NCBI GenBank assembly: GCA_017404665.1
Contig: JAFRBX010000055.1
Location: 1-47,759, forward strand
Source: Ruminococcus sp.
GTDB taxonomy: Bacteria > Bacillota > Clostridia > Oscillospirales > Acutalibacteraceae
Direction of reading: 5' to 3'
DNA length: 47,759 bases
Part shown: in pieces, positions 6,451 to 19,738 of the stretch
Position numbering within the stretch: position 1 is the first letter of the stretch
Layout of the letters: each line of letters begins with the position of its first letter
Notes under the pieces: generated by a model
Database searches by the model: none
What the model was told of the DNA's origin: nothing
Seen by the model: only the letters and a program-made list of their open reading frames with translations
Made by a program: the position numbers and the translations under genes

Positions 6451-9390
6451 TTGTTGTTTAAACGTATAATTTCACTATTTTTCGTGTTGATTTTAGCGTT
6501 CTCTGTTACGGTTACCTGCGTTTATGCCGATGAGGAGGACGGAGAGGAGCTCGCTGTGGAAGAAGTCCTCGCAGAAGAAGAGACTGAAGAAGAGACCGAA
6601 GCCTCCACCGAAGCTCCTACGCAGCCTCCGACAGAGCCTCCCAAGCCTGATCCGAATAAGCTCGGCTATGCCGCCTACGCAAAGAAGCTCGACGAGACAG
6701 TCTATACCGACTCGGATCTCGGCGCGACCTATATCGAAGACCACACCACCTTCAAGGTCTGGTCGCCTGCCGCTAAGGACGTGAAGGTCTGCATCTACAA
6801 GACCGGCTCCGATGAGGAAGAGGGCTTCAACACTATCGCTGTCAAGCCGATGAAATACTCCAAGAGCGTCGGCACGTGGTACATCACGCTCGACGGCGAT
6901 TATAAGAATATGTACTACACCTATAAGGTGACGGTAGGGGACAGCACCTACGAGGTCGTAGACCCCTACGCTAAGGCTGTCGGCGTCAACGGCAACCGCG
7001 GCATGATCGTCGATTTGCGCGAGACCGATCCCGAGGGCTGGGCGGACGACAGCTTCAGCCGCGCGGATTATGCGACCGACGCGGTCGTATGGGAGGTCAG
7101 CGTGCGCGACTTTTCCGCCGCCGCGTCCTCCGGCGTCAGCGAAGCGAACCGCGGCAAGTTTCTCGCGTTCACCGAGGATGATACCACGCTCGACGGCGCT
7201 GAGGGCGGCGCTTCCACTTGTGTTGCGTACCTTAAGGAGCTGGGCGTCAACTATGTCCAGATCAATCCGTTTTATGATTTTGCCTCGATCGACGAGGCGG
7301 AGCCGCTCGACGAGCAGTATAACTGGGGCTATGATCCCAAGAACTACAACGTTCCGGAGGGCTCCTATTCGTCTGATCCCTATGACGGACGCATCCGCAT
7401 CAAGGAATGCAAGCAGATGATCCAAGCGCTCCATAACGCCGGCATCGGCGTCATCATGGACGTTGTCTATAACCATACCTATTACTCTGAGGATTCGTTC
7501 TTCAATCAGCTCGTGCCGAGCTATTATCACCGCATCAAAGAGGACGGAAGCTGGTCGAACGGCTCAGGCTGCGGCAACGACGTCGCGACCGAGCGCACGA
7601 TGGTAAGCAAATTTATCCGTGAATCCGTCGCCTACTGGGCACAGGAATATCATATCGACGGCTTCCGCTTCGATCTGATGGGCTTGATGGATGTGGACAC
7701 CATGAACGGTATCCGCACCGATCTGGACGCTTTGCCCGACGGTAAAAGAATCATCATGTACGGTGAAGCGTGGAACATGACCACATCTGTTTCCTCCGAC
7801 ACCCTGCTCGCAACACAGGATAATCTGTATCAGCTCAGCCAGCGGATCGGCGCGTTCAACGATACCGGGCGCGACGCGATCAAGGGTTCCAACTTCAACG
7901 CGGCTGAAAAAGGCTTTGTGCAGGAGGGCTCCGGAAAAAGCGGCGTGCGCGACGCGATCGACGGCAGCGGCGCGGGCTGGGCGCAGGTGCCCAACCAGTG
8001 CGTGAACTACGCCTCCTGCCACGATAACCTGACTCTATATGATAAACTGACCGCTTCGGTCTATAATGATAAAAAGTACACCCTGCGGCGCGACGATCTG
8101 GTCGCGATGAACCGTCTTTCGGCGGCGACCGTGCTGATGTCGCGCGGCATGCCGTTCATGCTGGCGGGCGAGGAGCTCGGCAGGACAAAAGAGGGCGATG
8201 AGAACTCCTATCAGTCGTCGGTAGAAATCAATCAGATCGACTGGAAGAGCCGCTATCGCTTTACCTCGCTGACCGACTATTATCAGGGCTTGATCAAGAT
8301 CCGCAAGGCGATCCCCGCGCTTCGCGACGCGACAGGCAAAAATTCTGACATTGAATATCTGGAAACATCCGAAAAGAATGTGATCGCCTATTCTATCGGC
8401 GGCAGCGGTTCGACGACCTTGATTGTCGCGCTCAACGGCGATCCCGAGAATTCGGCTAAGATAAGTTTGCCTGACGGCGATTGGGTCGTCATCGCGGATG
8501 AAAACCGCGCGGGCTTAGTCTCTCTCGGCGCTGTGAGCGGCAGTGTCAATGTGTCCGCATCCTCCGCCTGTATCCTGATCGACGCCGAAAGCTTTTCTGC
8601 TGTTGAGGAGAGCGCCGAAGAATGCCTGATGTACATCCGTTATAAAGAAAAAAACAGCGGTGCGATCGTTTGTGAAGAACGACTGACCGGTCAGATGAAG
8701 GACAGCTATGTAGCGGCGACGCCGTCCGAGATACTGTTCAATTATAATATCCTGTCTCGTTCCGCACTCAGCGGCACCTTCAGCAAGGCTTTCGATGTCA
8801 TCGAGGTGGAGTGTGAAGCCTACGAGGGTGATTATTCCACCGTGACCGTCAAATATCTCGACGAGGAGGGTGATCCCCTCGCCAATACTGTCGTCATGAC
8901 CAACCGTGTAGGTCAGCAGTTTTTTACACCGTCTATCCCCGGCGTCAAGGGCTACGCGCTCAATCTTGATGAGCTCCCCGACAACGGCGCGGGCAAATAC
9001 ACCGAGGAGCCGATCGAAGTCATCTATCGCTATGTGAAAGCGGAAGACGGCGGCGAAGGAGAGGATGAAGCCATCTGCTCTGCCAACGTCATTTATCTGG
9101 CTGACGACGGCACGATCCTTGAGCTCAAGTCTTATCAGGGCGTCGAGGGCGATAAGCTCATGATCGAGGATATGGAATTCGACGGCTATGAATACTACGA
9201 TATCTCCAACGAAAACGCGCTGTTCGATCAGACCGAGCTCAACGTTCTGCTCTATTATCAGACTCCGAAAGCGAATTACCTGATCTATCTGATCGTCGCG
9301 GGCGCCGCGATCGTCCTTTTGGGCGGCATCGCTTTGATTGCCGGAACATCCAAAACGCGCAAAATGAAGGCGATCGACATCGAGGAGTAA
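6451..9390 (+). CDS. membrane-anchored type I pullulanase (GH13) with MucBP-like repeats
   Basis: 979 residues, TTG start. Signal peptide (KRIISLFFVLILAFSVTVTCVYA), then an acidic Glu-rich and Pro/Thr linker (about 27-70), a CBM48-like module (about 80-180) and a GH13 barrel. Pullulanase signature YNWGYDP is present; the nucleophile is D408 (DGFRFD), the acid/base E439 (MYGEAW) and the third carboxylate D525 (SCHDN). Two MucBP-like beta domains follow (about 790-930), then a C-terminal membrane helix with a basic stop-transfer tail (SKTRKMK). There is no LPXTG, so the membrane helix is the anchor. It would cleave alpha-1,6 branches of pullulan, amylopectin and branched dextrins at the cell surface. 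Close paralogue of the next gene, same strand, 120 bases apart. Confidence 0.92.
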   Translation: MLFKRIISLFFVLILAFSVTVTCVYADEEDGEELAVEEVLAEEETEEETEASTEAPTQPPTEPPKPDPNKLGYAAYAKKLDETVYTDSDLGATYIEDHTTFKVWSPAAKDVKVCIYKTGSDEEEGFNTIAVKPMKYSKSVGTWYITLDGDYKNMYYTYKVTVGDSTYEVVDPYAKAVGVNGNRGMIVDLRETDPEGWADDSFSRADYATDAVVWEVSVRDFSAAASSGVSEANRGKFLAFTEDDTTLDGAEGGASTCVAYLKELGVNYVQINPFYDFASIDEAEPLDEQYNWGYDPKNYNVPEGSYSSDPYDGRIRIKECKQMIQALHNAGIGVIMDVVYNHTYYSEDSFFNQLVPSYYHRIKEDGSWSNGSGCGNDVATERTMVSKFIRESVAYWAQEYHIDGFRFDLMGLMDVDTMNGIRTDLDALPDGKRIIMYGEAWNMTTSVSSDTLLATQDNLYQLSQRIGAFNDTGRDAIKGSNFNAAEKGFVQEGSGKSGVRDAIDGSGAGWAQVPNQCVNYASCHDNLTLYDKLTASVYNDKKYTLRRDDLVAMNRLSAATVLMSRGMPFMLAGEELGRTKEGDENSYQSSVEINQIDWKSRYRFTSLTDYYQGLIKIRKAIPALRDATGKNSDIEYLETSEKNVIAYSIGGSGSTTLIVALNGDPENSAKISLPDGDWVVIADENRAGLVSLGAVSGSVNVSASSACILIDAESFSAVEESAEECLMYIRYKEKNSGAIVCEERLTGQMKDSYVAATPSEILFNYNILSRSALSGTFSKAFDVIEVECEAYEGDYSTVTVKYLDEEGDPLANTVVMTNRVGQQFFTPSIPGVKGYALNLDELPDNGAGKYTEEPIEVIYRYVKAEDGGEGEDEAICSANVIYLADDGTILELKSYQGVEGDKLMIEDMEFDGYEYYDISNENALFDQTELNVLLYYQTPKANYLIYLIVAGAAIVLLGGIALIAGTSKTRKMKAIDIEE

Positions 9391-9396
9391 ATTAGC

Positions 9397-9414
9397 CTTC
9401 CCCTCAAGGGGAAG
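9397..9414. repeat. CTTCCCCT/AGGGGAAG hairpin
   Basis: A perfect 8-bp stem with a CA loop directly after the pullulanase stop. It resembles the start of intergenic GCCTTCCCCT...AGGGGAAGG repeats and has no T run, so termination is uncertain. The rest of the gap to 9510 shows only the AAGGAGG site of the next gene. Confidence 0.5.
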
Positions 9415-9510
9415 ATGTGCTTTACGTTGACTTCGCGCGGTGTATCCGCCGATCCATATGCTTATGATCATGTTTTTCATAAAATATTAATCTTTTAAGG
9501 AGGAAAACGC

Positions 9511-12500
9511 ATGAAAAAAACAAGAAAACTCATATCTCTGCTCTTGTGTGTCGCGCTTGTTGTTTCGGTGATGTCCGTTGCGGTCGTATCGACCTCCGCT
9601 GCGGCTAATCCCTTCAGCGACGCCGCGATGGCGCTGGATCAGGAATATGCCTATGACGGAGAATTAGGCGCGATCTATTCTCCCGACGCGACCACCTTCA
9701 AGGTGTGGGCGCCGCTGGCGACTGAGGTAACGCTCAACCGCTATGCCACCGGCTCCGACGATGAGAATGGCGCTGAGGACCTCGGCACTGTTCCCATGGA
9801 AAAGCTGATGGACGGCGACACTTGGACAGGCGTTTGGACTGTCACCGTAGAGGGCGACATCGTCAACACCTACTACACCTACTCTATCACCAACCCTAAT
9901 CACATCTACGGCGCGACCGCTAACGTGACCCGCGAAACACAGGACGTCTATTCCTATGCTGTCGGCGTTAACGGCAACCGCTCCATGGTAGTCGATCTCG
10001 ACGCTACCGATCCCGAGGGCTGGGATAACGATTCTCACGTCTTCACCGACACCCAGACCGACGCGATCATCTGGGAAGTTCAGGTCAAGGATTTCTCCTA
10101 TGCGGAGAATTCCGGCGTCAGCGACGCGAACCGCGGCAAGTTCCTCGCGTTCACCGAGAACGGCACCACTCTCAACAACGAGGGCAATATTGCGACCTGT
10201 ATCGACTATCTGAAGAATCTGGGCGTTACCCATGTTCAGATCAACCCCTTCTATGATTTTGCGACCATCGACGAATCCGGCGACGACAGCCAGTTCAACT
10301 GGGGCTATGACCCGAAGAACTACGGCGTTCCCGAGGGTTCCTACTCCACCAATCCCTACGACGGCAACGTCCGCATCAATGAGTGCAAGCAGATGATCCA
10401 AGCGCTGCATGACGCGGGCATCGGCGTTATCATGGACGTGGTTTATAACCACACCTACTCGGTCGACTCGTGCTTTACCGCCTGTGTTCCCGAGTATTAC
10501 TACAGAATGGCTGCCGACGGCGGCTACAGCCAGCAGTCCGGCTGCGGCAACGATACCGCCTCCGAGCGCGCAATGTACCGTAAGTATATGCGCGAAATGC
10601 TCAACTACTGGACAACTGAGTATCATATCGACGGTTACCGCTTCGACCTGATGGGCGTTCACGACGGCGAGACCATGAACATGATTCGCGACGATATGGA
10701 CGCGATCGACAGCCGTATCATCATGTACGGCGAGGGCTGGGCAGGCGACACTGTATACGATCCCACCACCTGTGCCGGTACAGAAACCTTCATGACCACA
10801 CAGGGCAACTCCGCGAAGCTCTCTACCCGCATCGGCTTCTTCAATGACCAGATCCGTGACGCCATCAAGGGCAATGTCTTCCACAAGGAAGAGGGCGGTT
10901 TTGTACAGAACGTCAAGACCTCCGCTCCCGGCGTCAACTACGGTATCCGCGCGAACACCATCGGCAAGGCGAGATGGCACGCGCAGTCGCCCGAGCAGTG
11001 TCTGACCTATGCTTCCTGCCACGATAACTACACGCTTTATGATAAGCTCGCTTACGTCGATCAGGGCGGCACCGTTGCCAACTACCGTCAACGTTTTGCG
11101 AACGTTGTCAAGCAGAACAAGCTGACCGGCGCTATTATCAGCTCCTGCCAGGGCATGGACTTCATCCTCGCGGGCGAGGAGATGGGCCGCTCGAAGGACG
11201 GCGACGAGAACTCCTACAAGAGCGCTGCTACCCTGAATATGATCGACTGGTCGCTCTTAAAGACCAATGCCGATATCGTATCCTATTACAGAGGCTTGTT
11301 CGAGCTGAGAAAGGCGTTCTCTCCCTTTACCGCAAATGTTACCGACACGGATGATGACAGCTACGAATATATCTTTGAAACCTCCTCTACAGGTTCCGTG
11401 AACCCCATCGCATATACGATCCATAACAACGTTGAGGGTGAGTGGAACAAGATAGCTGTGATCTACAACGGCGGCGATAAGCAGACCACCTTCACCTTCA
11501 AGGGCAAGAAGGACAATACCATCAACGCCGACACCGAATGGGTCATCGTCGCGAACGATCAGGTAGCAGGCGTACAGAACCTCGGCGAGACCAAGGGTCT
11601 GTCCTTTACCGTTCCCGCGTATTCCGCTCTGATCGCAGTCGAAAAGAGCACCTATGAAGAAGCTGCTATCGCTTCCGATTTCTCCACCCTGACCATCAAC
11701 AGTGTGGATAAGAACGGCAATAGCCTTTCGACCAACACCCTGATCGGTAAGCCCGGCGAAGGCTATGAGGTATCTCCCGACGGCTCTATCCCGATCGAGT
11801 ATGAGCTGAACGCCGTCGAAGGCGACGAGATCGGTACTTTCTCTGACGAGCCTACGACAGTTACCTACAAATATGTTGATTACGTTCCCGAGAGATTCCG
11901 CGCGCCTGACGGTGACATAAACGACGACGGTGTTGTCGATATCATCGACGTGACCGTTCTCCAGAGATATCTCGCTCGTTTCATTAAGCTCGATGAAGAG
12001 CATGCGGCACGCGGCGACTACGATCAGGACGGCAAGACCGATTCTCCCGACGTCACCCTGCTCCAGCGCTGGCTTGCCGGTTCGATCGCTCCCACAAACA
12101 CCGTTACCACCCGCTATCTCGGCAGACTGGACGACGGCACCGTGAGAGCCATCGGTTCCGCTACCGTTGAGAAGTATCGCTACGGCGAGGCGTACACAAC
12201 CGAGCCGCAGACGATCGCTTACTATAAGCTTACCGAAACTCCCGCCAATGCTTCCGGCTTTGTCACCAAGAAGACGGTCGTCACCTACTGGTATGCCTAC
12301 AGCGTGGCAAGCCCGAAGATGCACGTCAAGCACAGCGGCGATCTGGATTGGGCACCCAACCTCTGGGCGTGGGCGTATGACGGCTCCGGTCAGGCAATCA
12401 ATTGCTATGACGGATGGCCGGGCTTACTGCTCACCGATCCCGACGGCGACGGCTGGTACGATGTGACCTTCCCGATCCCCGGAGGCCTCAACTACTACTT

Positions 12501-12681
12501 CATCATCAGCAACAACGCGAATCCGCAGACCAAGGACTACGGAGTAATCGACGGTCAGAACGTCGGTATCTCCTACGATGAGTATCCCGAGATCTGGGTT
12601 GTCATTCAGGACGATCTGGTCGGCAAGAACAACGGCGACTGGTGCAAGTACTATAATTACAATCCCGATTTGGAAAATTAA
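9511..12681 (+). CDS. secreted type I pullulanase (GH13) with dockerin and starch-binding module
   Basis: 1056 residues behind AAGGAGG. Signal peptide (KKTRKLISLLLCVALVVSVMSVAVVSTSAAA), CBM48-like module (about 45-150), GH13 barrel with FNWGYDP, nucleophile D379 (DGYRFD), acid/base E408 (MYGEGW) and D505 (SCHDN). A MucBP-like domain (about 723-792) is followed by a type I dockerin (about 800-862) with two intact calcium loops, DINDDGVVDIID and DYDQDGKTDSPD. A second MucBP-like segment comes next, then a C-terminal CBM26/CBM25-like module (about 935-1050; WAPNLWAWAYDG, GWPGLLLTDPDGDGWY). The dockerin implies attachment to a cohesin scaffold, as in the R. bromii amylosome; no cohesin gene is in the window. 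Confidence 0.93.
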   Translation: MKKTRKLISLLLCVALVVSVMSVAVVSTSAAANPFSDAAMALDQEYAYDGELGAIYSPDATTFKVWAPLATEVTLNRYATGSDDENGAEDLGTVPMEKLMDGDTWTGVWTVTVEGDIVNTYYTYSITNPNHIYGATANVTRETQDVYSYAVGVNGNRSMVVDLDATDPEGWDNDSHVFTDTQTDAIIWEVQVKDFSYAENSGVSDANRGKFLAFTENGTTLNNEGNIATCIDYLKNLGVTHVQINPFYDFATIDESGDDSQFNWGYDPKNYGVPEGSYSTNPYDGNVRINECKQMIQALHDAGIGVIMDVVYNHTYSVDSCFTACVPEYYYRMAADGGYSQQSGCGNDTASERAMYRKYMREMLNYWTTEYHIDGYRFDLMGVHDGETMNMIRDDMDAIDSRIIMYGEGWAGDTVYDPTTCAGTETFMTTQGNSAKLSTRIGFFNDQIRDAIKGNVFHKEEGGFVQNVKTSAPGVNYGIRANTIGKARWHAQSPEQCLTYASCHDNYTLYDKLAYVDQGGTVANYRQRFANVVKQNKLTGAIISSCQGMDFILAGEEMGRSKDGDENSYKSAATLNMIDWSLLKTNADIVSYYRGLFELRKAFSPFTANVTDTDDDSYEYIFETSSTGSVNPIAYTIHNNVEGEWNKIAVIYNGGDKQTTFTFKGKKDNTINADTEWVIVANDQVAGVQNLGETKGLSFTVPAYSALIAVEKSTYEEAAIASDFSTLTINSVDKNGNSLSTNTLIGKPGEGYEVSPDGSIPIEYELNAVEGDEIGTFSDEPTTVTYKYVDYVPERFRAPDGDINDDGVVDIIDVTVLQRYLARFIKLDEEHAARGDYDQDGKTDSPDVTLLQRWLAGSIAPTNTVTTRYLGRLDDGTVRAIGSATVEKYRYGEAYTTEPQTIAYYKLTETPANASGFVTKKTVVTYWYAYSVASPKMHVKHSGDLDWAPNLWAWAYDGSGQAINCYDGWPGLLLTDPDGDGWYDVTFPIPGGLNYYFIISNNANPQTKDYGVIDGQNVGISYDEYPEIWVVIQDDLVGKNNGDWCKYYNYNPDLEN

Positions 12682-12726: not shown

Positions 12727-12920
12727 TCGGCTATTCTTCATCAGGCGAAAAATGTCATTTTAAGTATCAGATCCTATTTTGATCCGTTTAACAAAATATG
12801 TTCTGCTGCCGTGAACGGCTTTTTGCTAAAACCGCTTGACCCATTCGGAAGCAAGCGGCTTTCGCAAAAAGTCTGCGCAAAACCGATTATCCTGCCATCG
12901 CTTTTTCAAAGGGAGTATCC

Positions 12921-15900
12921 ATGAGTAATAAAGCAAACAACAGCCTTACGCCGCAGCAGTATATCCGATCACAGGGATATACCTACTTTGCCTTCATCAG
13001 CTATCGGCATCTGGACAAAAAATGGGCGATATGGCTCAAGAGAAAACTGCAGTCATACCGTTTGCCCGTCAAAACGCATGAGCAATACAGCGACCTGCCC
13101 TCGCGGATCAGCCCGATTTTTCTGGACAGGGACAACATGCGCTCGGGAGAACTGAAAAAGCTTGAGCGGGAAGAGGTGCAGTCCTCCAAATTTCTGATCG
13201 TCATTTGTTCCAAAAACGCTTTTCGGCATTCTGATAACATTGATGATGAAATTCATTATTTTATCGAGGGCGGCGGCGATTTGTCGCACATCATCCCGTT
13301 TGTCATAGATCAATCCGAGCATCCCGAGGAGGAGTGTTTCCCCGCAAAGCTTCAGGAACTGTACAAAGCGGCAGCGTCATCGAAAAAAACATCAGAACAT
13401 AAACCGACAGACAGTCCGGAAGTTAAGCCGGAAGAAAAAGCATCAGGTAAGCCGGTCGTCTTCAATATTCATGATTTCGGCAAAAACGACGCTTTTTTGA
13501 AGGTTGTCGCCAAGATGCACGGCATCAAGTCCGACGAGCTGGAAGCAGAAGAAAAAATCAGAAGAAAAAAACACAGAATCATCAATACCGCTGTCGCCGC
13601 GGTTCTCGCGGTCGCGATGTGCGCAGCGGCATATTATTGCTGGGATTACTATGTTCCCAAGCGACACTATTATCTGGACTATACCGAGGTATACGGACTG
13701 CCGAAGGGAATAGGAGAACTGCAGCGAGCAGAAACGAAGTCGTTGAATCAGTTTTTTACGATCGTCTCACGCGGCGGGAAGATCCGGGAGCTCAGGCTTG
13801 AAAATGCTTACGGTCAAATCGTCATATCGAGCTGGACGAAAAGCGACGACGGGGCTATCCATGCCGTGTACGGCTACACGGATGACGGAACGCTGAGCAC
13901 GGTGACCCATTACGACGCTAATGATAATCCGATCGGTGAATACAGCTATTCCGGCGCAAATCTGAAAACGATCGACTTAAGGAATCATGTCGCCGAAAAC
14001 AGCAGTGATTATGACAGAAGCACGTCGCTTTCTGCACACTCTACGGGTTGGCTGAGCACAAACAGCGATCAGACGTCTCAAAACGGAAACGTGATGCGTT
14101 ATTTGGTCGATTATGATGAAGACGGCTATGTCAAAGAAATTCGCTATGCCTGTAACACCATGAATTATGTTGCTGCGGACGCCGACGGCGTCAGCGGCGT
14201 CAGATTCGAGCGCGACGAATGGGGGCGGGTGATTCGCGAATCATATCTGATATTTACCGGAGAGGGAAAAACTGCGGAAAACCCTGAGGACTATGAGATC
14301 ATCGGCTCGCGGACAGGCGTAGCGGCGGTCGAATATGACTATGATGGCTTTGACGGAGTTGAAACACGCTTTTTGGACGTCAGCGGCAAACTGACGACCG
14401 GGTTTCTTTCCGTCTGTGTCGATCGGTTGGAATACAAGGACCATAATGTTGTGAAAAGTTCTTACTATGACGCTGACGGCAGACCGATGTTCAGCTCAGG
14501 CGGTTACGCGTCGTATGAAGCTGTGTATGACGATCACGGGAACGAAATCAGAGAGAGCTACTGCGGGACCGACGGCGAGCTTGTGATGCTGGACGACGGT
14601 TACGCGTTTACCGAAAGTGAATTTGATGACTGCGGAAATATCATCAGGCTTTGTTATTACGGGACCGATGGCACGCCCGTGACGAACAGCGACGGCTATG
14701 CGTCGTTTGAGAGAACGTATGACGCGAACAGGAATCCAATCAAGATTTCTTTCTTCGGCGTTGACGGAAGTCCGGTTATGCATAAAGACGGATACTCGTC
14801 AAGTGTGCTCGCTTATGACGACCGCGGAAACGCGACTTATCAGGCGTTTTTCGGCACGGACGGCGCTCCGGTGCTGATTAATGAGGGGTACGCGTGCGTA
14901 AAAATCGAATATAACAAGCAGGACCTGGAAATCAAAGATAGTTATTTCGGCACTGACGGCAACCCCGTTTTAAGCAGTATCGGAAACGCGTCATGGGAGT
15001 TCGAGTATGACGAATGGGAAAACAAGATCAAAGCGAGCGCCTTCGGAATACGCGGAGAGCCTGTCGTCATCAATGACGGATACTCCTATTGGGAATGTGA
15101 ATATACCAATCGCGGCAGCATCCGGAGAATGTGCAGCTACGGAACCGACGGGGAACCGGTGCTGTCAAAGAATGGTTACGCGGCGGTTGAAATCGATTAC
15201 GACGATTGGGGGAACGAGATCGGGAAGCGCTTTTACGGCGCGGACGGAAAGCCTGTCATCATCAATGACGGCTTTGCGTCGTTTGAGAGTGAATTTGATA
15301 ACAGAGGGAACGTCATCAAGATGACATTTTACGGCACGGATGATGCTCCGATTTTAACCGGCAGCGGTTATGCCGCGGCAACATGCGAATATGATAAGAG
15401 AGGCAATCGGACCAAGCTGAGCTGTTACGGCGTTGACGGAAGACCGATACTGAGCGCGGCCGGCTACGCTGTTATGCTCAAAGAATACAATGACAAGGGC
15501 AAAGAGATCAGATCAAGCTATTACGGTATAGACGGTGAACCGACCCTCATTGATAACGGTTATGCTTCGAACGTGACTGAATATGACGAGAGAGGCAACA
15601 GTATCCGACTGAGCTATTACGATATCAAAGGAGATCCGGTACTGACCGCCGACGGCTATGCTTCAGTCAAACAAGAGTATGACGAAAGGGGCGGCGTTAC
15701 CAAAATGAGCTTTTTCGGTACTGATGACAAGCTCTTGATAAACGCGGGCGGATACGCGGTAATGGAAAGTGAATACGACGAGAGAGGAAATGAAATCAGG
15801 AGGAGCTATTACGGCGCCGACGATCAACTGATTATGAGCAGTGAGGGCTTTGCGTACGCCGAGGTCCAATATGATGAAAAGGGAAGTCCCGTTTCATTGA

Positions 15901-15935
15901 TCAGATACGACGCGGACGGTAATATCATAGAATGA
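12921..15935 (+). CDS. TIR-domain receptor-like membrane protein with 32-residue tandem repeats (paralogue 1)
   Basis: 1004 residues; AAAGGGA lies six bases before the ATG. An N-terminal TIR domain (about 17-150) has FAFISYRHLDKKWAIWL, SPIFLDRDNMRSGEL and KFLIVICSKN. E110 of IDDEI is at the position of the catalytic glutamate of NAD-cleaving TIRs. A Pro/Glu/Lys linker leads to a juxtamembrane KVVAKMHGIKSDEL segment, a basic RRKKHR stop and one membrane helix (about 219-240). The outer part has a proximal domain (about 245-525) and 14 full plus one short tandem repeat of exactly 32 residues (528-1004), pattern GYAxxExEYDERGNxIxxS, then YYGxDGxPV. The repeats resemble RHS/YD-type strands but carry no toxin domain. 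Inferred topology is TIR inside, repeats outside. Ligand and output are unknown. Confidence 0.8.
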   Translation: MSNKANNSLTPQQYIRSQGYTYFAFISYRHLDKKWAIWLKRKLQSYRLPVKTHEQYSDLPSRISPIFLDRDNMRSGELKKLEREEVQSSKFLIVICSKNAFRHSDNIDDEIHYFIEGGGDLSHIIPFVIDQSEHPEEECFPAKLQELYKAAASSKKTSEHKPTDSPEVKPEEKASGKPVVFNIHDFGKNDAFLKVVAKMHGIKSDELEAEEKIRRKKHRIINTAVAAVLAVAMCAAAYYCWDYYVPKRHYYLDYTEVYGLPKGIGELQRAETKSLNQFFTIVSRGGKIRELRLENAYGQIVISSWTKSDDGAIHAVYGYTDDGTLSTVTHYDANDNPIGEYSYSGANLKTIDLRNHVAENSSDYDRSTSLSAHSTGWLSTNSDQTSQNGNVMRYLVDYDEDGYVKEIRYACNTMNYVAADADGVSGVRFERDEWGRVIRESYLIFTGEGKTAENPEDYEIIGSRTGVAAVEYDYDGFDGVETRFLDVSGKLTTGFLSVCVDRLEYKDHNVVKSSYYDADGRPMFSSGGYASYEAVYDDHGNEIRESYCGTDGELVMLDDGYAFTESEFDDCGNIIRLCYYGTDGTPVTNSDGYASFERTYDANRNPIKISFFGVDGSPVMHKDGYSSSVLAYDDRGNATYQAFFGTDGAPVLINEGYACVKIEYNKQDLEIKDSYFGTDGNPVLSSIGNASWEFEYDEWENKIKASAFGIRGEPVVINDGYSYWECEYTNRGSIRRMCSYGTDGEPVLSKNGYAAVEIDYDDWGNEIGKRFYGADGKPVIINDGFASFESEFDNRGNVIKMTFYGTDDAPILTGSGYAAATCEYDKRGNRTKLSCYGVDGRPILSAAGYAVMLKEYNDKGKEIRSSYYGIDGEPTLIDNGYASNVTEYDERGNSIRLSYYDIKGDPVLTADGYASVKQEYDERGGVTKMSFFGTDDKLLINAGGYAVMESEYDERGNEIRRSYYGADDQLIMSSEGFAYAEVQYDEKGSPVSLIRYDADGNIIE

Positions 15936-16005
15936 GATGCCGATCGCTGCATAATAATGAAGTTTTTGTTGTTACCATACGCTCATCAGAAGAGGGAGGA
16001 CGATT

Positions 16006-19000
16006 ATGTCAAAAAAACAGGCATTATCACCGGAACAATATTTGAATGCGCAGGGCTACACCTACTTTGCCTATATCAGCTGCATGCATGCGGACAGGAA
16101 GTGGGCGATATGGCTTAAACGCAAGCTGCAGGCGTACCGACTGCCGGTCAGAACGCAGGAGTATCACAGTGATCTGCCCTCGCGGATCAGTCCGATCTAT
16201 CTGGATTTGGGCGACCTGCGGTCCGGAGATCTGACCCGTTCGGAAGGGGAAGAGCTGCACTCCTCCAAATTCCTGATCGTTATCTGTTCCAAAAACGCGT
16301 GCCGGAACTCTCGTGTTATCGACGATGAGATCCGTTTTTTCCTCGAAAGCGGCGGCGACTACTCGCGTATCATCCCTTTTATCGTCAACAAATCCGAGCG
16401 TCCGGAGTGGGACTGCTTTCCGCAGTGTCTGCAGGAGCTGTGTCAGATCACCAACATCGTCGGCACCAACATCTATGATTCCGGTAAGTCCGACGCTGTC
16501 CTGAAGGTCGTCGCCAAGATGCATGGCATCAAGCTCGAAGAGCTGGAAAGCGAGGAAAAAAGAAGAAGGAAAAAGCAAAGGAGGATCAAAGCTGCCGTCG
16601 CCGCAGTTCCGGCGGTCGCTGCGATCGCTGCCGGCGTCATATGCTGGAATTATTATGTTCCCAAGGTCAGCCATTATCTGGATTATACGACGGTCAAGGG
16701 ATTGCCGCAGGGTATCGGCAAGCTGTCAAAAACGCAGACCGAATCGCTCGACGCGTTTTACACGATTATCTCGCGGTACGGAAAGATTCAGGAGCTCCGT
16801 CATGAGAATCCATCCGGGAATATCGTCGGAACAGATGATAGTGTGAAGAATAACGGCGCTGTCCATGCGGTCTACGGTTATTCGAAAAACGGTATATTGT
16901 CCGATGTGACGTATTATGACGCGTTCGATAATCCCGAATATCAGCAGAACTATTCCGGAGATAATCTTAAAACGATCGATATCAGGAGGTATGTCGACGC
17001 GAACAGCGCCGGATATGAAGGCGGCTCATCGCTCAATGCCCATACGGTGACTGTCTTGGACATTGACGTTTTAACTGATAATCGAAGCAATAACGTTGTC
17101 AGGTATCTTATCGATTATGACGATAAAGGCTTTATTTCCGAGATCCGGTATGCCAGCAGCACCACGACGAATTACGTCGGCGTTGACGCCGACGGGATCA
17201 GCGGTATCCGATATGAGCGCGATGAGCTCGGCAGAGTGACCCGTGAATCCTTCCTGACATTTATCGGTGAAGGAAAAACGGCGACGAACCCCGAGGATTA
17301 TCAGATCGTCGGTACAAGCACGGGCTTAGCTTCAATCGAATATGACTATGACGGCTTTGACTGTGTAGAAAAGCGCTATCTGAACGCCGAAGGACAAGCT
17401 ATCCCTGCAGACAAGAACGTATCTGTCTTCAAAACAGAATTCGCCGACCACAAACCGGTAAAGGAATCCTATTATAATCCCGACGGTTCGTTGATCATGT
17501 CAGATGACGGCTTTGCTTTCTGCGAATGTGCTTACGACGAACACGGAAATCAGATCGAGCTGCGCTATTATGACGCCGACGGCGAGCCTGTGCTGAACAA
17601 GGAATGGTATGCTTCACAGAAATCAGAATTTGACGCCGACGGAAATATGCTTCGGACAGCCTTCTATGATACTCACGGCGACCCTGTATTGACGTCCGGA
17701 GGATTTGCCGCGCTGCAGAGAGAATATGATGAGAGAGGCAACGCGACCAGAACAGATTATTACGATGCCGACGGCAAGCTGACCTTGCTCAAAGAAGGGT
17801 ACGCGACAATTAAAAACGAATATGACGATCAGGGTAATATGACATATATCGGCTTTTTCGGCGTCGACGGCTCTCCCGCGATACACAGCGACGGTTATTC
17901 TTTCTGCAGATACGATTATAATGCTAAGGGTTACGAAACAAAGAGGTCATATTACGGAGTGAACGATAAGCCCGTGTTGAAAAACGGCGGTTATTCAACT
18001 TGGGAAAGCGAGTATGATGAATGGGGAAATCTGACCAAGGCGAGCGCTTACGGAATTGACAGTGAGCCTATCCTGATTGACGCCGGTTATTCATACTGGA
18101 AAAGTGAATATAATGACAGAGGACTTATTACAAAAATGAGCTTCTACGGGATCGACGAAGAACTGATCGAGACCGCGGACGGTTATGCCATGATCACTTC
18201 CGAGTATGATGATTGGGGAAATAATACCGAGAAAAGCTTTTACGGAGCAGACGGCAAGTTCATACTGTCAGACGGCGGTTATGCGACGCAAAAGAACGAG
18301 TATGACGCGCGAGGCAATATAGTGAAGGCGAGCTATTGCGGCGCTGACGGTGAGCCGATCGTGGTAAAAGAAGGCTATGCTTCGGTCGTGTTAGAATACG
18401 ACGAGAGAGGAAACACCGTAAAAATGACAACCTTGGATCTTGACGGCAATCCTGTTGCGGCGGATGCAGGCTACGCTTCACACGAGATCGAATATGATGA
18501 CCGGGGACGGACGATCAAGGCAGCCTTTTATGACTCCGACGGCAAATTGACAATGATCGAGGACGGTTACGCGATAGGGACGATCGAATACGACGAGAGA
18601 GGTCATAATATCAAAACGTGCTATTATGATACCGACGGTGAGCTTATCGCTGATGAAAACGGCGATGCGTACATCGAATATGAATATGACGAGAGAGGAA
18701 ACCTGATAAAAGGCAGCTGCTACGGCGCTGATGAAAAGCTCCGCATGAACCAATATAACTATGCCGTGTGTACCTCCGAGTTTGACGGAAGAGGCTATGA
18801 GATCAGAAGGGCGTACTATGACGCCGACAACAAACCGGTCATATGCAGCGCGGACTATTTCTCGTGGGATGCGGAATATGACGCGCGCGGCAATCGGATC
18901 AGGCAGTGCTTCTACGATACCGACGGCAATCCGGTCATGAGTCAAAACGGCTGCGCCGCATGGGAAGCCTATTATGATCAGCAGGGGACTTTAAGAGCCT

Positions 19001-19053
19001 ACGCTTACTACGACGCAGAAGGCAATATCATTGAGCAGAGCTCAAATAATTGA
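16006..19053 (+). CDS. TIR-domain receptor-like membrane protein with 32-residue tandem repeats (paralogue 2)
   Basis: 1015 residues; GAGGGAGG precedes the ATG by seven bases. It has the same plan as the preceding gene: TIR (about 17-145), KVVAKMHGIKLEEL, basic RRRKKQRR, one membrane helix (about 193-216), proximal outer domain, and 16 repeats of about 32 residues from 502 to the C-terminus. The TIR has diverged at signature points: box 1 reads FAYISCMHAD instead of FAFISYRHLD, and box 2 reads LDLGDLRSG instead of LDRDNMRSG, so the conserved arginine is gone, while VIDDEI (E108) is kept. It may be a pseudo-TIR partner. The genes are 70 bases apart without a terminator and are probably cotranscribed. 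Repeat units differ between the paralogues, so the duplication is not recent. Confidence 0.8.
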   Translation: MSKKQALSPEQYLNAQGYTYFAYISCMHADRKWAIWLKRKLQAYRLPVRTQEYHSDLPSRISPIYLDLGDLRSGDLTRSEGEELHSSKFLIVICSKNACRNSRVIDDEIRFFLESGGDYSRIIPFIVNKSERPEWDCFPQCLQELCQITNIVGTNIYDSGKSDAVLKVVAKMHGIKLEELESEEKRRRKKQRRIKAAVAAVPAVAAIAAGVICWNYYVPKVSHYLDYTTVKGLPQGIGKLSKTQTESLDAFYTIISRYGKIQELRHENPSGNIVGTDDSVKNNGAVHAVYGYSKNGILSDVTYYDAFDNPEYQQNYSGDNLKTIDIRRYVDANSAGYEGGSSLNAHTVTVLDIDVLTDNRSNNVVRYLIDYDDKGFISEIRYASSTTTNYVGVDADGISGIRYERDELGRVTRESFLTFIGEGKTATNPEDYQIVGTSTGLASIEYDYDGFDCVEKRYLNAEGQAIPADKNVSVFKTEFADHKPVKESYYNPDGSLIMSDDGFAFCECAYDEHGNQIELRYYDADGEPVLNKEWYASQKSEFDADGNMLRTAFYDTHGDPVLTSGGFAALQREYDERGNATRTDYYDADGKLTLLKEGYATIKNEYDDQGNMTYIGFFGVDGSPAIHSDGYSFCRYDYNAKGYETKRSYYGVNDKPVLKNGGYSTWESEYDEWGNLTKASAYGIDSEPILIDAGYSYWKSEYNDRGLITKMSFYGIDEELIETADGYAMITSEYDDWGNNTEKSFYGADGKFILSDGGYATQKNEYDARGNIVKASYCGADGEPIVVKEGYASVVLEYDERGNTVKMTTLDLDGNPVAADAGYASHEIEYDDRGRTIKAAFYDSDGKLTMIEDGYAIGTIEYDERGHNIKTCYYDTDGELIADENGDAYIEYEYDERGNLIKGSCYGADEKLRMNQYNYAVCTSEFDGRGYEIRRAYYDADNKPVICSADYFSWDAEYDARGNRIRQCFYDTDGNPVMSQNGCAAWEAYYDQQGTLRAYAYYDAEGNIIEQSSNN

Positions 19054-19077
19054 CGGCAATCGGTTCTCAACATCTGC

Positions 19078-19138: not shown

Positions 19139-19738
19139 ATGAATATCGTTTGTTTGGATTTAGAGGGCGTATTGGTACCGGAAATATGGATCGCGTTTGC
19201 AGAAGCCTCGGGTATCCCGGAGCTTAAGCGTACCACCCGCGACGAGCCCGACTACGACAAGCTGATGAAGTACCGTCTGGATATTCTCGACGCTCACGGA
19301 TTGGGACTCAAAGAGATTCAGGAGACCATCGCGAAGATCGACCCGATGCCCGGCGCTAAGGCGTTTTTGGATGAGCTTCGTTCGATCACGCAGGCGGTCA
19401 TCCTCAGCGACACTTTCTCTCAGTTCGCAAAGCCACTGATGGAAAAGCTCGGCTGGCCGGCGATCTTCTGCAACGAGCTTGTCGTGGATGAAAACGGCAA
19501 AATCACTGATTATAAGCTCCGCTGTGAAAAGACCAAGCTGACCACTGTCCGCGCGCTCCAGAGCTGCGGCTTTGAGACGATCGCCTCCGGCGACAGCTTC
19601 AACGACCTCGCCATGATAAAGGCGAGCAAGGCGGGTTTCCTGTTCCGCGCTCCCGACAGCATCAAAGCGGATTATCCCGATATCCCCGCGTGCGAGACCT
19701 ACGACGAGCTGCTCGCGCTGATCAAATCGGCTCTGTGA
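19139..19738 (+). CDS. thrH: ThrH-type phosphoserine phosphatase / homoserine phosphotransferase (HAD)
   Basis: 199 residues, close to the about 205 of Pseudomonas ThrH. HAD motifs in order: DLEGVL (nucleophile and acid aspartate/glutamate variant typical of ThrH, residues 7-12), LSDTFSQF (motif II), the lysine in RCEKTKL (motif III), and SGDSFNDLAMIK (motif IV metal aspartates). Known members dephosphorylate phosphoserine and can pass the phosphate to homoserine, linking serine and threonine metabolism. AAGGAAGG lies upstream of the ATG at 19139. It has its own promoter and a strong terminator, so it is independent of the TIR genes before it. Confidence 0.88.
   Translation: MNIVCLDLEGVLVPEIWIAFAEASGIPELKRTTRDEPDYDKLMKYRLDILDAHGLGLKEIQETIAKIDPMPGAKAFLDELRSITQAVILSDTFSQFAKPLMEKLGWPAIFCNELVVDENGKITDYKLRCEKTKLTTVRALQSCGFETIASGDSFNDLAMIKASKAGFLFRAPDSIKADYPDIPACETYDELLALIKSAL

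What the first reader, a model, noticed from the sequence alone, without database searches (positions are those of the whole stretch)
12921..19053. Tandem pair of TIR receptor-like proteins with long repeat ectodomains
Two adjacent paralogues each place a TIR domain at the cytosolic N-terminus, then a juxtamembrane KVVAKMHGIK segment, one membrane helix and about 480-510 residues of exact 32-residue repeats. The topology is that of a receptor: outer repeats, one helix, inner TIR. Bacterial TIRs are known mainly as soluble NAD-cleaving or NAD-signal enzymes in phage defence or as effectors. A membrane TIR pair with a long repeat array outside and no separate effector gene nearby is unusual and may be a signalling or abortive-defence sensor.
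Basis: partly seen in the sequence, partly recalled or inferred. Interest (0 to 1): 0.75.

Follow-up and report, generated by a model that had tools for sequence, protein, structure and literature searches.

The report
Membrane TIR receptors linked to channels
Two neighbouring bacterial genes look like cell-surface receptors with an inner TIR enzyme domain, and over a third of the related loci studied also carry genes for channel-like proteins or for the domain found in animal ryanodine receptors, hinting at a bacterial receptor-to-channel alarm pathway that has not been tested.

Summary
A (12921-15935) and B (16006-19053) are intact sister paralogues: N-terminal TIR, stalk, one predicted membrane helix, cap region, then repeats of period 32 that are not exact copies (mean 12/32 identical). 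The pair sits between an amylase and a HAD gene that are directly adjacent in 3 of 5 same-genus genomes examined. The catalytic Glu is kept in both; the modelled TIR matches SARM1 TIR best; the ectodomain models as a YD/Rhs-type beta-repeat array. They belong to a large family with exchangeable ectodomains (194 relatives, 78 loci studied). New: 29 of 78 loci carry channel-like and/or RyR-domain genes, concentrated beside the TIR gene; one protein fuses TIR and RyR; of 27 genomes with RyR, 25 carry TIR_2, and 12 of 28 RyR loci have one within about 10 kb. The window locus itself has no such neighbour; its genome carries RyR and channel-like genes elsewhere, and four further TIR genes. Best reading: an envelope sensor whose TIR makes an NAD-derived messenger that gates a RyR/RCK-type channel. 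The signalling is inferred; phage defence is unproven.

The parts
12921..15935 (+). gene A, 1004 aa TIR-TM-cap-repeat protein
12987..13361 (+). TIR domain of A (about residues 23-147)
   Evidence: AF2 pLDDT 91.3, pTM 0.87 for residues 1-218; best Foldseek hit SARM1 TIR
13248..13250 (+). Glu110 of A, aligned with the Glu of AbTIR and related NADases
13500..13529 (+). KVVAKMHGIK segment of A (residues 194-203), predicted helix
13578..13634 (+). predicted membrane helix of A (residues about 220-238)
13653..14465 (+). cap region of A, conserved in YD-type relatives
14502..15929 (+). 14 full plus one partial 32-residue repeats of A
16006..19053 (+). gene B, 1015 aa paralogue of A
16327..16329 (+). 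Glu of B (residue 108) aligned with Glu110 of A
16504..16533 (+). KVVAKMHGIK segment of B
16585..16647 (+). predicted membrane helix of B (residues about 194-214)
17509..19044 (+). 16 repeats of 32 residues in B
12730..19075 (+). two-gene cassette absent from the syntenic site in three same-genus genomes (G012, G801, G023)
9511..12681 (+). left flank: amylase/pullulanase-type gene with dockerin
19139..19738 (+). right flank: HAD hydrolase

Best explanation
A and B are single-pass, N-in membrane receptors. The outer cap and YD/Rhs-type repeat array senses something at the cell envelope (ligand unknown: phage, neighbouring cell, wall or glycan). Sensing clusters the inner TIR domains, which cut NAD+ and release an ADP-ribose-type messenger. 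That messenger is read by RyR-domain proteins and by RCK/TrkA-like channel proteins that carry a RyR-like C-terminus; channel opening changes ion flow and stops growth or kills the cell. In many relatives receptor and channel genes are adjacent; in the window genome they would act in trans. Shown (by computation): domain content, topology signature, conserved Glu, modular family, genomic association of TIR with RyR/channel genes. Inferred: NADase activity, identity of the messenger, its binding to RyR, channel gating, and the biological trigger.
For: TIR fold and Glu; Glu in 98 of 102 aligned TIR rows. Ectodomain fold. The same repeat type occurs on a Ser/Thr kinase-TM protein, L109 (Pkinase 1.4e-36), and on lipoprotein L110. 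Neighbours: Ion_trans_2 plus RyR in L114:8385-9899 and L118:8428-10002; a TTVGYGD-type filter in the channel gene of L114, L115, L117, L118, L120 and L121. 29 of 78 loci have a channel-like or RyR gene, 18 of them within 100 bp on the same strand; density falls from 1.26 per 10 kb at 0-2 kb to 0 at 8-10 kb. TIR-RyR fusion L222:8799-10805. 25 of 27 RyR genomes have TIR_2 against 42 of at most 183 others. 12 of 28 RyR loci have TIR_2 within about 10 kb, about 2.6% expected from TIR density in those genomes. All 4 order genomes with a strong (E < 1e-30) TIR match carry RyR against 23 of 390. RyR domains of phage RyDEP proteins bind and cleave 2'cADPR/3'cADPR (PMC13232231, abstract and passages). 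The window genome encodes a 93-aa RyR protein next to an 828-aa channel-like ORF.
Against: No channel or RyR gene lies beside A/B; 49 of 78 related loci show none in the fetched flanks (contigs often short). The channel profile was built from neighbours of these loci, so its hits are partly by construction; my RyR profile was seeded from 4 of them. Of 33 strong channel-profile rows listed only 8 (6 loci, two seen twice) show the K-type filter; the window genome's two (L197, L198) do not, and they match no Pfam family, so calling them channels rests on my profile. The window genome has four further TIR genes (C16, C55, C19, C53) that could serve its RyR module. 16 of 28 RyR loci show no TIR_2 within about 10 kb, and the TIRs that do lie there are mostly not of this receptor family. 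RyR genomes G503 and G683 have no TIR_2 at E 1e-6, though G503 has a TIR by my profile. B has SCM where most rows have a Tyr second. Two tandem relatives have Val at the Glu position. The p-values ignore relatedness; the 4-of-4 test includes the own genome, which helped build the profile (3 of 3 without it, p 2.6e-4).
Confidence: 0.42

Rival explanations
1. Membrane TIR NADase as its own effector: ectodomain sensing triggers direct NAD+ depletion and abortive death; RyR/channel neighbours belong to other modules in the same regions.
For: No channel next to A/B; Glu conserved; RyR and RCK-like genes also occur without a TIR nearby.
Against: Overlapping channel and TIR genes in L117, L118, L121; TIR-RyR fusion.
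Confidence: 0.22
2. Cell-cell or kin recognition (adhesion) receptor, like teneurins in topology, with the TIR as a scaffold rather than an enzyme.
For: YD-type fold as in teneurins (their type 2 topology from an abstract); tandem paralogues with divergent ectodomains.
Against: Catalytic Glu kept in 98 of 102 rows; no TIR adaptor seen among the neighbours scanned.
Confidence: 0.13
3. Glycan or cell-wall sensor regulating polysaccharide use, since A/B follow two amylase-type genes and the same repeats occur on polytopic membrane proteins.
For: Window neighbours; L106 and L108, polytopic by eye.
Against: Relatives G012, G801 and G023 have the amylase-HAD neighbourhood without A/B; by eye none of the 12 recurrent neighbour clusters printed looks like an amylase.
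Confidence: 0.1
4. Rhs-derived toxin or its remnant.
For: Foldseek top hits are Rhs cores.
Against: No Rhs core, cleavage or toxin domain over cut-off by Pfam/NCBIfam; N-terminal TIR-TM.
Confidence: 0.04

Closest known systems
Thoeris (ThsB TIR, ThsA)
   Same: TIR as maker of an NAD-derived messenger; A also matches ThsB_TIR above cut-off
   Different: Membrane-anchored with a large ectodomain; no SIR2/Macro-SLOG ThsA among the window neighbours scanned; candidate effector is a RyR/RCK-type channel in trans
Animal Toll-like / IL-1 receptors
   Same: Ectodomain, one helix, cytosolic TIR
   Different: Reversed order (TIR at the N-terminus), YD-type repeats not LRR/Ig, catalytic Glu kept; similarity of plan, not shown to be homologous as a whole
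Teneurins and Rhs proteins
   Same: YD-type beta repeats; teneurins are also N-in single-pass
   Different: No Rhs core or toxin end; cytosolic TIR
Bacterial TIR-TM-WD40 proteins
   Same: Related TIR and helix; RyR/channel genes near some of them too
   Different: WD40 ectodomain instead of cap plus YD repeats
Phage RyDEP (RyR-domain proteins that cleave or sequester cADPR isomers; PMC13232231)
   Same: RyR domain linked to TIR messengers
   Different: Phage evasion protein; here RyR genes are the bacterium's own and often lie by channel-like genes
RCK-gated channels (CASTOR/POLLUX, K+ channels)
   Same: Pore plus RCK/TrkA-like cytosolic part in some neighbours
   Different: RyR-like C-terminus and TIR operon partner

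Membership tests
TIR domain (Pfam TIR_2) | Profile match over the curated cut-off | tested here: met
   39 and 31.8 bits against cut-off 28
TIR NADase | Catalytic Glu in the TIR fold | tested here: met
   the role of this Glu is recalled
TIR NADase | NAD+ cleavage | not testable with these tools
   needs assay
Thoeris | Adjacent ThsA-type SIR2/Macro-SLOG effector | tested here: not met
   None among nine window neighbours scanned by Pfam and no PADLOC hit for A/B; the whole genome was not scanned for ThsA
Toll-like receptor | LRR ectodomain with C-terminal TIR | tested here: not met
   TIR is N-terminal; no LRR match in Pfam
Rhs/teneurin | YD-type beta repeats | tested here: met
   Foldseek E 6.9e-27 to Rhs cores, teneurins next; NCBIfam YD_repeat_2x over cut-off in B only; Pfam RHS_repeat below cut-off in B, not listed for A
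Rhs/teneurin | Rhs core/cleavage domain or toxin end | tested here: not met
   No such match over cut-off
TIR-RyR-channel module (proposed here) | RyR/RCK channel gene next to the TIR-TM gene | tested here: not met
   Absent beside A/B; RyR and channel-like genes elsewhere in the genome and in 29 of 78 related loci
Known anti-phage systems (PADLOC) | PADLOC profile match | tested here: not met
   0 families for A and B; 0 for the three channel-like and two RyR proteins tried, while the WD40-type relative L153 gave weak matches, among them a SAVED-TIR model at 4.8e-9

The most novel reading that the evidence does not exclude
Gut bacteria have Toll-receptor-like membrane TIR enzymes with interchangeable, duplicating ectodomains that signal through a cADPR-family messenger to bacterial ryanodine-receptor-domain ion channels: a bacterial forerunner or parallel of both Toll-type receptors and cADPR-ryanodine-receptor signalling.
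Probability: 0.3. Interest if true: 0.92.

Novelty: new variant of a known kind. Interest (0 to 1): 0.72.

Why it matters
Bacterial TIRs known to me are mostly soluble or tied to intracellular sensors. An outside-in receptor form, spread over several phyla with swappable ectodomains and linked to RyR/RCK-type channels, would give a new route from envelope sensing to a nucleotide signal and ion flow. It would also make the long-debated cADPR-ryanodine receptor link testable in a small bacterial system.

Tried and rejected
First genome-contig scan with A2 gave 167 pattern hits, none confirmed. A viral-contig scan and a phage search found none; plasmids gave 4 TIR-only matches in rhizobia, at most 20% coverage. 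Prophage or plasmid origin is therefore unsupported. Exact-repeat idea rejected. Simple toxin reading rejected. Promoter and terminator counts did not exceed shuffles. Repeat profile against PDB sequences: one match, E 0.1, not meaningful. A strict pairing of A/B with a neighbouring effector was rejected for the window itself. Exclusive coupling of RyR to this TIR family was rejected: RyR genes also sit by other TIRs, a DUF4062-ATPase protein, FtsH-like AAA/M41 proteins and Card1-like genes, or alone. Burroughs et al. 2015 (recalled as relevant) is not held, so an earlier description of TIR-RyR links cannot be excluded. Held literature searched (capped listings): no listed title or abstract start describes TIR-TM-YD proteins or membrane TIRs with RyR channels.

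Counts and dropped rows: only 78 loci from 194 confirmed relatives were returned and studied. L039, L102, L103 and L040 duplicate L125, L121, L117 and L184 and were left out of the tree, as were L159 and short or broken rows (L142, L151, L179, L180). In one search, ORFs under 300 aa matching only the channel profile, and matches weaker than 1e-5, were not counted. Ectodomain classes in the tree other than YD32 were set by length and a crude motif count. At a hydropathy threshold of 1.5 no helix was called in five YD-type rows (L123, L144:585, L150, L151, L163:4395). Of five same-genus genomes compared for an empty site, G004 ended at its contig end and G006 matched only the HAD gene. An earlier tally of 14 of 14 RyR genomes with TIR_2 counted only genomes listed as TIR-positive and was biased; it is replaced by 25 of 27. 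That the 394 genomes are the same set is inferred from their handles.
Full report
WHAT IS THERE. Window 12921-15935 (A, 1004 aa) and 16006-19053 (B, 1015 aa) are two intact ORFs on the + strand, 70 bp apart. They are 51% identical overall. Pfam TIR_2 matches residues 25-136 of A (E 1.3e-9) and 23-133 of B (E 2.2e-7), and ThsB_TIR matches A at 6.6e-5, over its cut-off. A stalk with LKVVAKMHGIK, a run of basic residues and one hydrophobic helix follow. Then comes a cap region of about 270 residues and a repeat array with consensus GYA....EYD.RGN.I..S.YG.DG.PV. The period is exactly 32, but the 30 tiled units average only 12.05 of 32 identical positions, maximum 18, and no DNA tandem array is seen. 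So 'exact repeats' in the finding is right as to length and wrong as to sequence.

THE CASSETTE IS ACCESSORY. A protein search of 59 genomes (own included) had hits in 3 at E <= 1e-5: the own genome, G050 and, of 35 other same-genus genomes, G025 alone, a distant TIR match. In same-genus genomes G012, G801 and G023 the same flanks are kept but the amylase gene is followed directly by the HAD gene; the missing part corresponds to window about 12730-19075, between the amylase terminator and the HAD promoter-like site. Two further genomes compared, G004 and G006, were not informative. The simplest reading is gain of a two-gene unit; loss in the others is possible.

STRUCTURE. The A TIR model (residues 1-218, 46 sequences) has mean pLDDT 91.3 and pTM 0.87. 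Foldseek's best PDB hit is SARM1 TIR, E 1.1e-4, with EcThsB2, PdTIR and AbTIR lower. In a profile alignment Glu110 falls on the Glu of the AbTIR-type W..xE motif (that this Glu is catalytic is recalled). It is kept in 98 of 102 aligned TIR rows; 2 have Val, 1 Trp, 1 a gap. B keeps the Glu but has SCM where 94 of 102 rows have Tyr at the second position. The ectodomain model (A 243-1004, 23 sequences) has mean pLDDT 88.2, pTM 0.81, and is an array of paired strands. Foldseek's best hits are Rhs cores (E 6.9e-27), then teneurins and Tc shells; global TM-scores are low (query-normalised 0.13-0.40 for these), so the repeat fold matches, not the closed shell. The outer location of the repeats is inferred: the basic residues lie on the TIR side of the helix, and the same repeats occur on L110, which has a canonical lipobox by eye, and on L107, a possible lipoprotein.

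A LARGE MODULAR FAMILY. A genome-contig scan with A5 confirmed 194 relatives; the best 80 gave 78 loci. Many record titles name gut or rumen sources, some do not; the organisms include Clostridia, Bacteroidota, Akkermansia, Spirochaetaceae, Synergistaceae, Planctomycetia and Kiritimatiellae. 40 of 78 loci have a TIR with at least 5 such repeats. Of 43 further members scanned, nearly all without the repeats, 43 match TIR_2 and 20 match WD40. In a 114-row TIR tree, ectodomain class (YD32, short, other large) needs at least 14 changes against 44.9 in shuffles: clustered, but exchanged repeatedly (quick method, class labels crude). A and B are sisters (support 92) and join L129 (98), which shows a single gene near a contig end, so their duplication looks recent. 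Tandem TIR genes recur: 15 of 78 loci hold two or more. In two of them (L122:5466, L126:380) one member has Val at the Glu position. The same repeat type also occurs on a protein kinase-TM protein, L109 (Pkinase 1.4e-36), and on polytopic membrane proteins L106 and L108 (polytopic by eye; RHS_repeat over cut-off in L108 and L110).

THE CHANNEL AND RYR LINK. Clustering of neighbours around 41 YD-type loci gave a channel-like family in 13 loci as the top recurrent cluster, and RyR-domain proteins in 7. Pfam confirms Ion_trans_2 (6.2e-13) plus RyR (2.4e-6) in L114:8385-9899, Ion_trans_2 plus RyR in L118:8428-10002, Slo-like_RCK in L163 (L148 just below cut-off), and RyR in L124 (9.7e-33) and L148 (6.6e-34); L114:6512-8380 and L146:8032-9972 match nothing. 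Six loci (L114, L115, L117, L118, L120, L121) have the order channel-like, K-type channel with TTVGYGD, TIR-TM-YD; in L117, L118 and L121 the last two genes overlap. The other strong channel-profile rows, 25 of 33 listed, lack that filter. Over all 78 loci, 29 hold a channel-like or RyR gene (17 of 40 YD, 12 of 38 other); 18 have one within 100 bp on the same strand (15 and 3). Density per 10 kb falls from 1.26 (0-2 kb) through 0.49, 0.38 and 0.12 to 0 (8-10 kb). RyR-like hits alone occur in 24 of 78 loci (E <= 1e-3). Bias: the channel profile was built from such neighbours and my RyR profile was seeded from four of them; Pfam's PF02026 is independent.

REVERSE TEST. PF02026 was found in 27 of 394 genomes of the order, in 28 distinct loci (29 rows; two share an ORF), and in 0 of 14 control genomes. 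TIR_2 was found in 25 of these 27 (14 listed, 11 of the other 13; G503 and G683 had none at E 1e-6). In a sample of 197 genomes 56 had TIR_2, so among those without RyR it was 42 of 181 to 183; Fisher p about 2e-12, relatedness ignored. TIR_2 lies within about 10 kb in 12 of 28 RyR loci (G056, G450:C1, G464, G466, G494, G534, G559, G673, G721, G756, G772, G783); from 83 TIR matches in about 65 Mb of these genomes 2.6% would be expected per 20 kb. Most of these neighbouring TIRs are other TIR types, not this receptor family. One is a single protein, L222:8799-10805, with TIR_2 (8.8e-12) and RyR (4.2e-18). The G701 locus has a DUF4062-ATPase protein instead. All 4 genomes with a strong (E < 1e-30) match to the A4 TIR profile (G000, G503, G721, G756) have RyR against 23 of 390, p 1.8e-5; without the own genome 3 of 3, p 2.6e-4. 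With the looser cut-off it is 5 of 10 against 22 of 384. G721 and G756 share a genus.

THE WINDOW GENOME. It has a 93-aa RyR protein on contig C40 (PF02026 2.1e-34; 1.8e-30 to the solved 'putative ryanodine receptor' 3nrt) right after an 828-aa channel-like ORF with a weak RyR-like end (E 8e-4), and a 593-aa channel-like ORF on C39. Neither large ORF matches Pfam or shows the K-type filter. It also has four TIR genes besides A, B and the C9 receptor-like gene. So a trans link between A/B and this module is possible but not specific.

MECHANISM AND NOVELTY. The most likely chain is envelope sensing, TIR clustering, NAD-derived messenger, RyR/RCK-type channel. The messenger step gains weight from a 2026 preprint (PMC13232231; abstract and passages seen) in which phage RyR-domain proteins bind and cleave 2'cADPR and 3'cADPR and resemble the R12 domain of animal ryanodine receptors. 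Everything after the TIR fold is inference. The searches of the held library (capped listings) showed no description of this receptor family or of its channel partners; the passages seen of the TIR survey PMC7075850 and of PMC7159879 do not describe it. A key earlier paper is not held. I file it as a new variant of a known kind (TIR nucleotide signalling), with a bolder reading that the data do not exclude.

Noticed in passing
6451-12681: Two tandem amylase/pullulanase-type genes with CBM48 and MucBP; the second also has dockerin (amylosome-like).
   Followed up: no
L109:7586-10456 (G283): Protein kinase with one membrane helix and the same type of outer repeats: a second signalling output on this ectodomain type.
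   Followed up: partly
L122:5466-6842 and L126:380-2569: TIR-TM paralogues with Val in place of the catalytic Glu, in tandem with intact ones: possible pseudoenzyme partners.
   Followed up: no
L153, L166, L190, L191: TIR-TM proteins whose WD40 repeats are 62-71% identical at lag 42-43, suggesting recent repeat amplification.
   Followed up: no
L222:8799-10805: One protein with both TIR and RyR domains.
   Followed up: partly
L209:3845-5095, L213:7173-8405, L208:11247-14618, L217:4928-8443, L219:4281-8795: RyR genes also sit beside Card1-like genes, FtsH-like AAA/M41 proteins and a DUF4062-ATPase protein, so RyR may read several nucleotide signals.
   Followed up: partly
L138, L142, L149, L150: YD-type ORFs split over frames; decay, phase variation or assembly error.
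   Followed up: no
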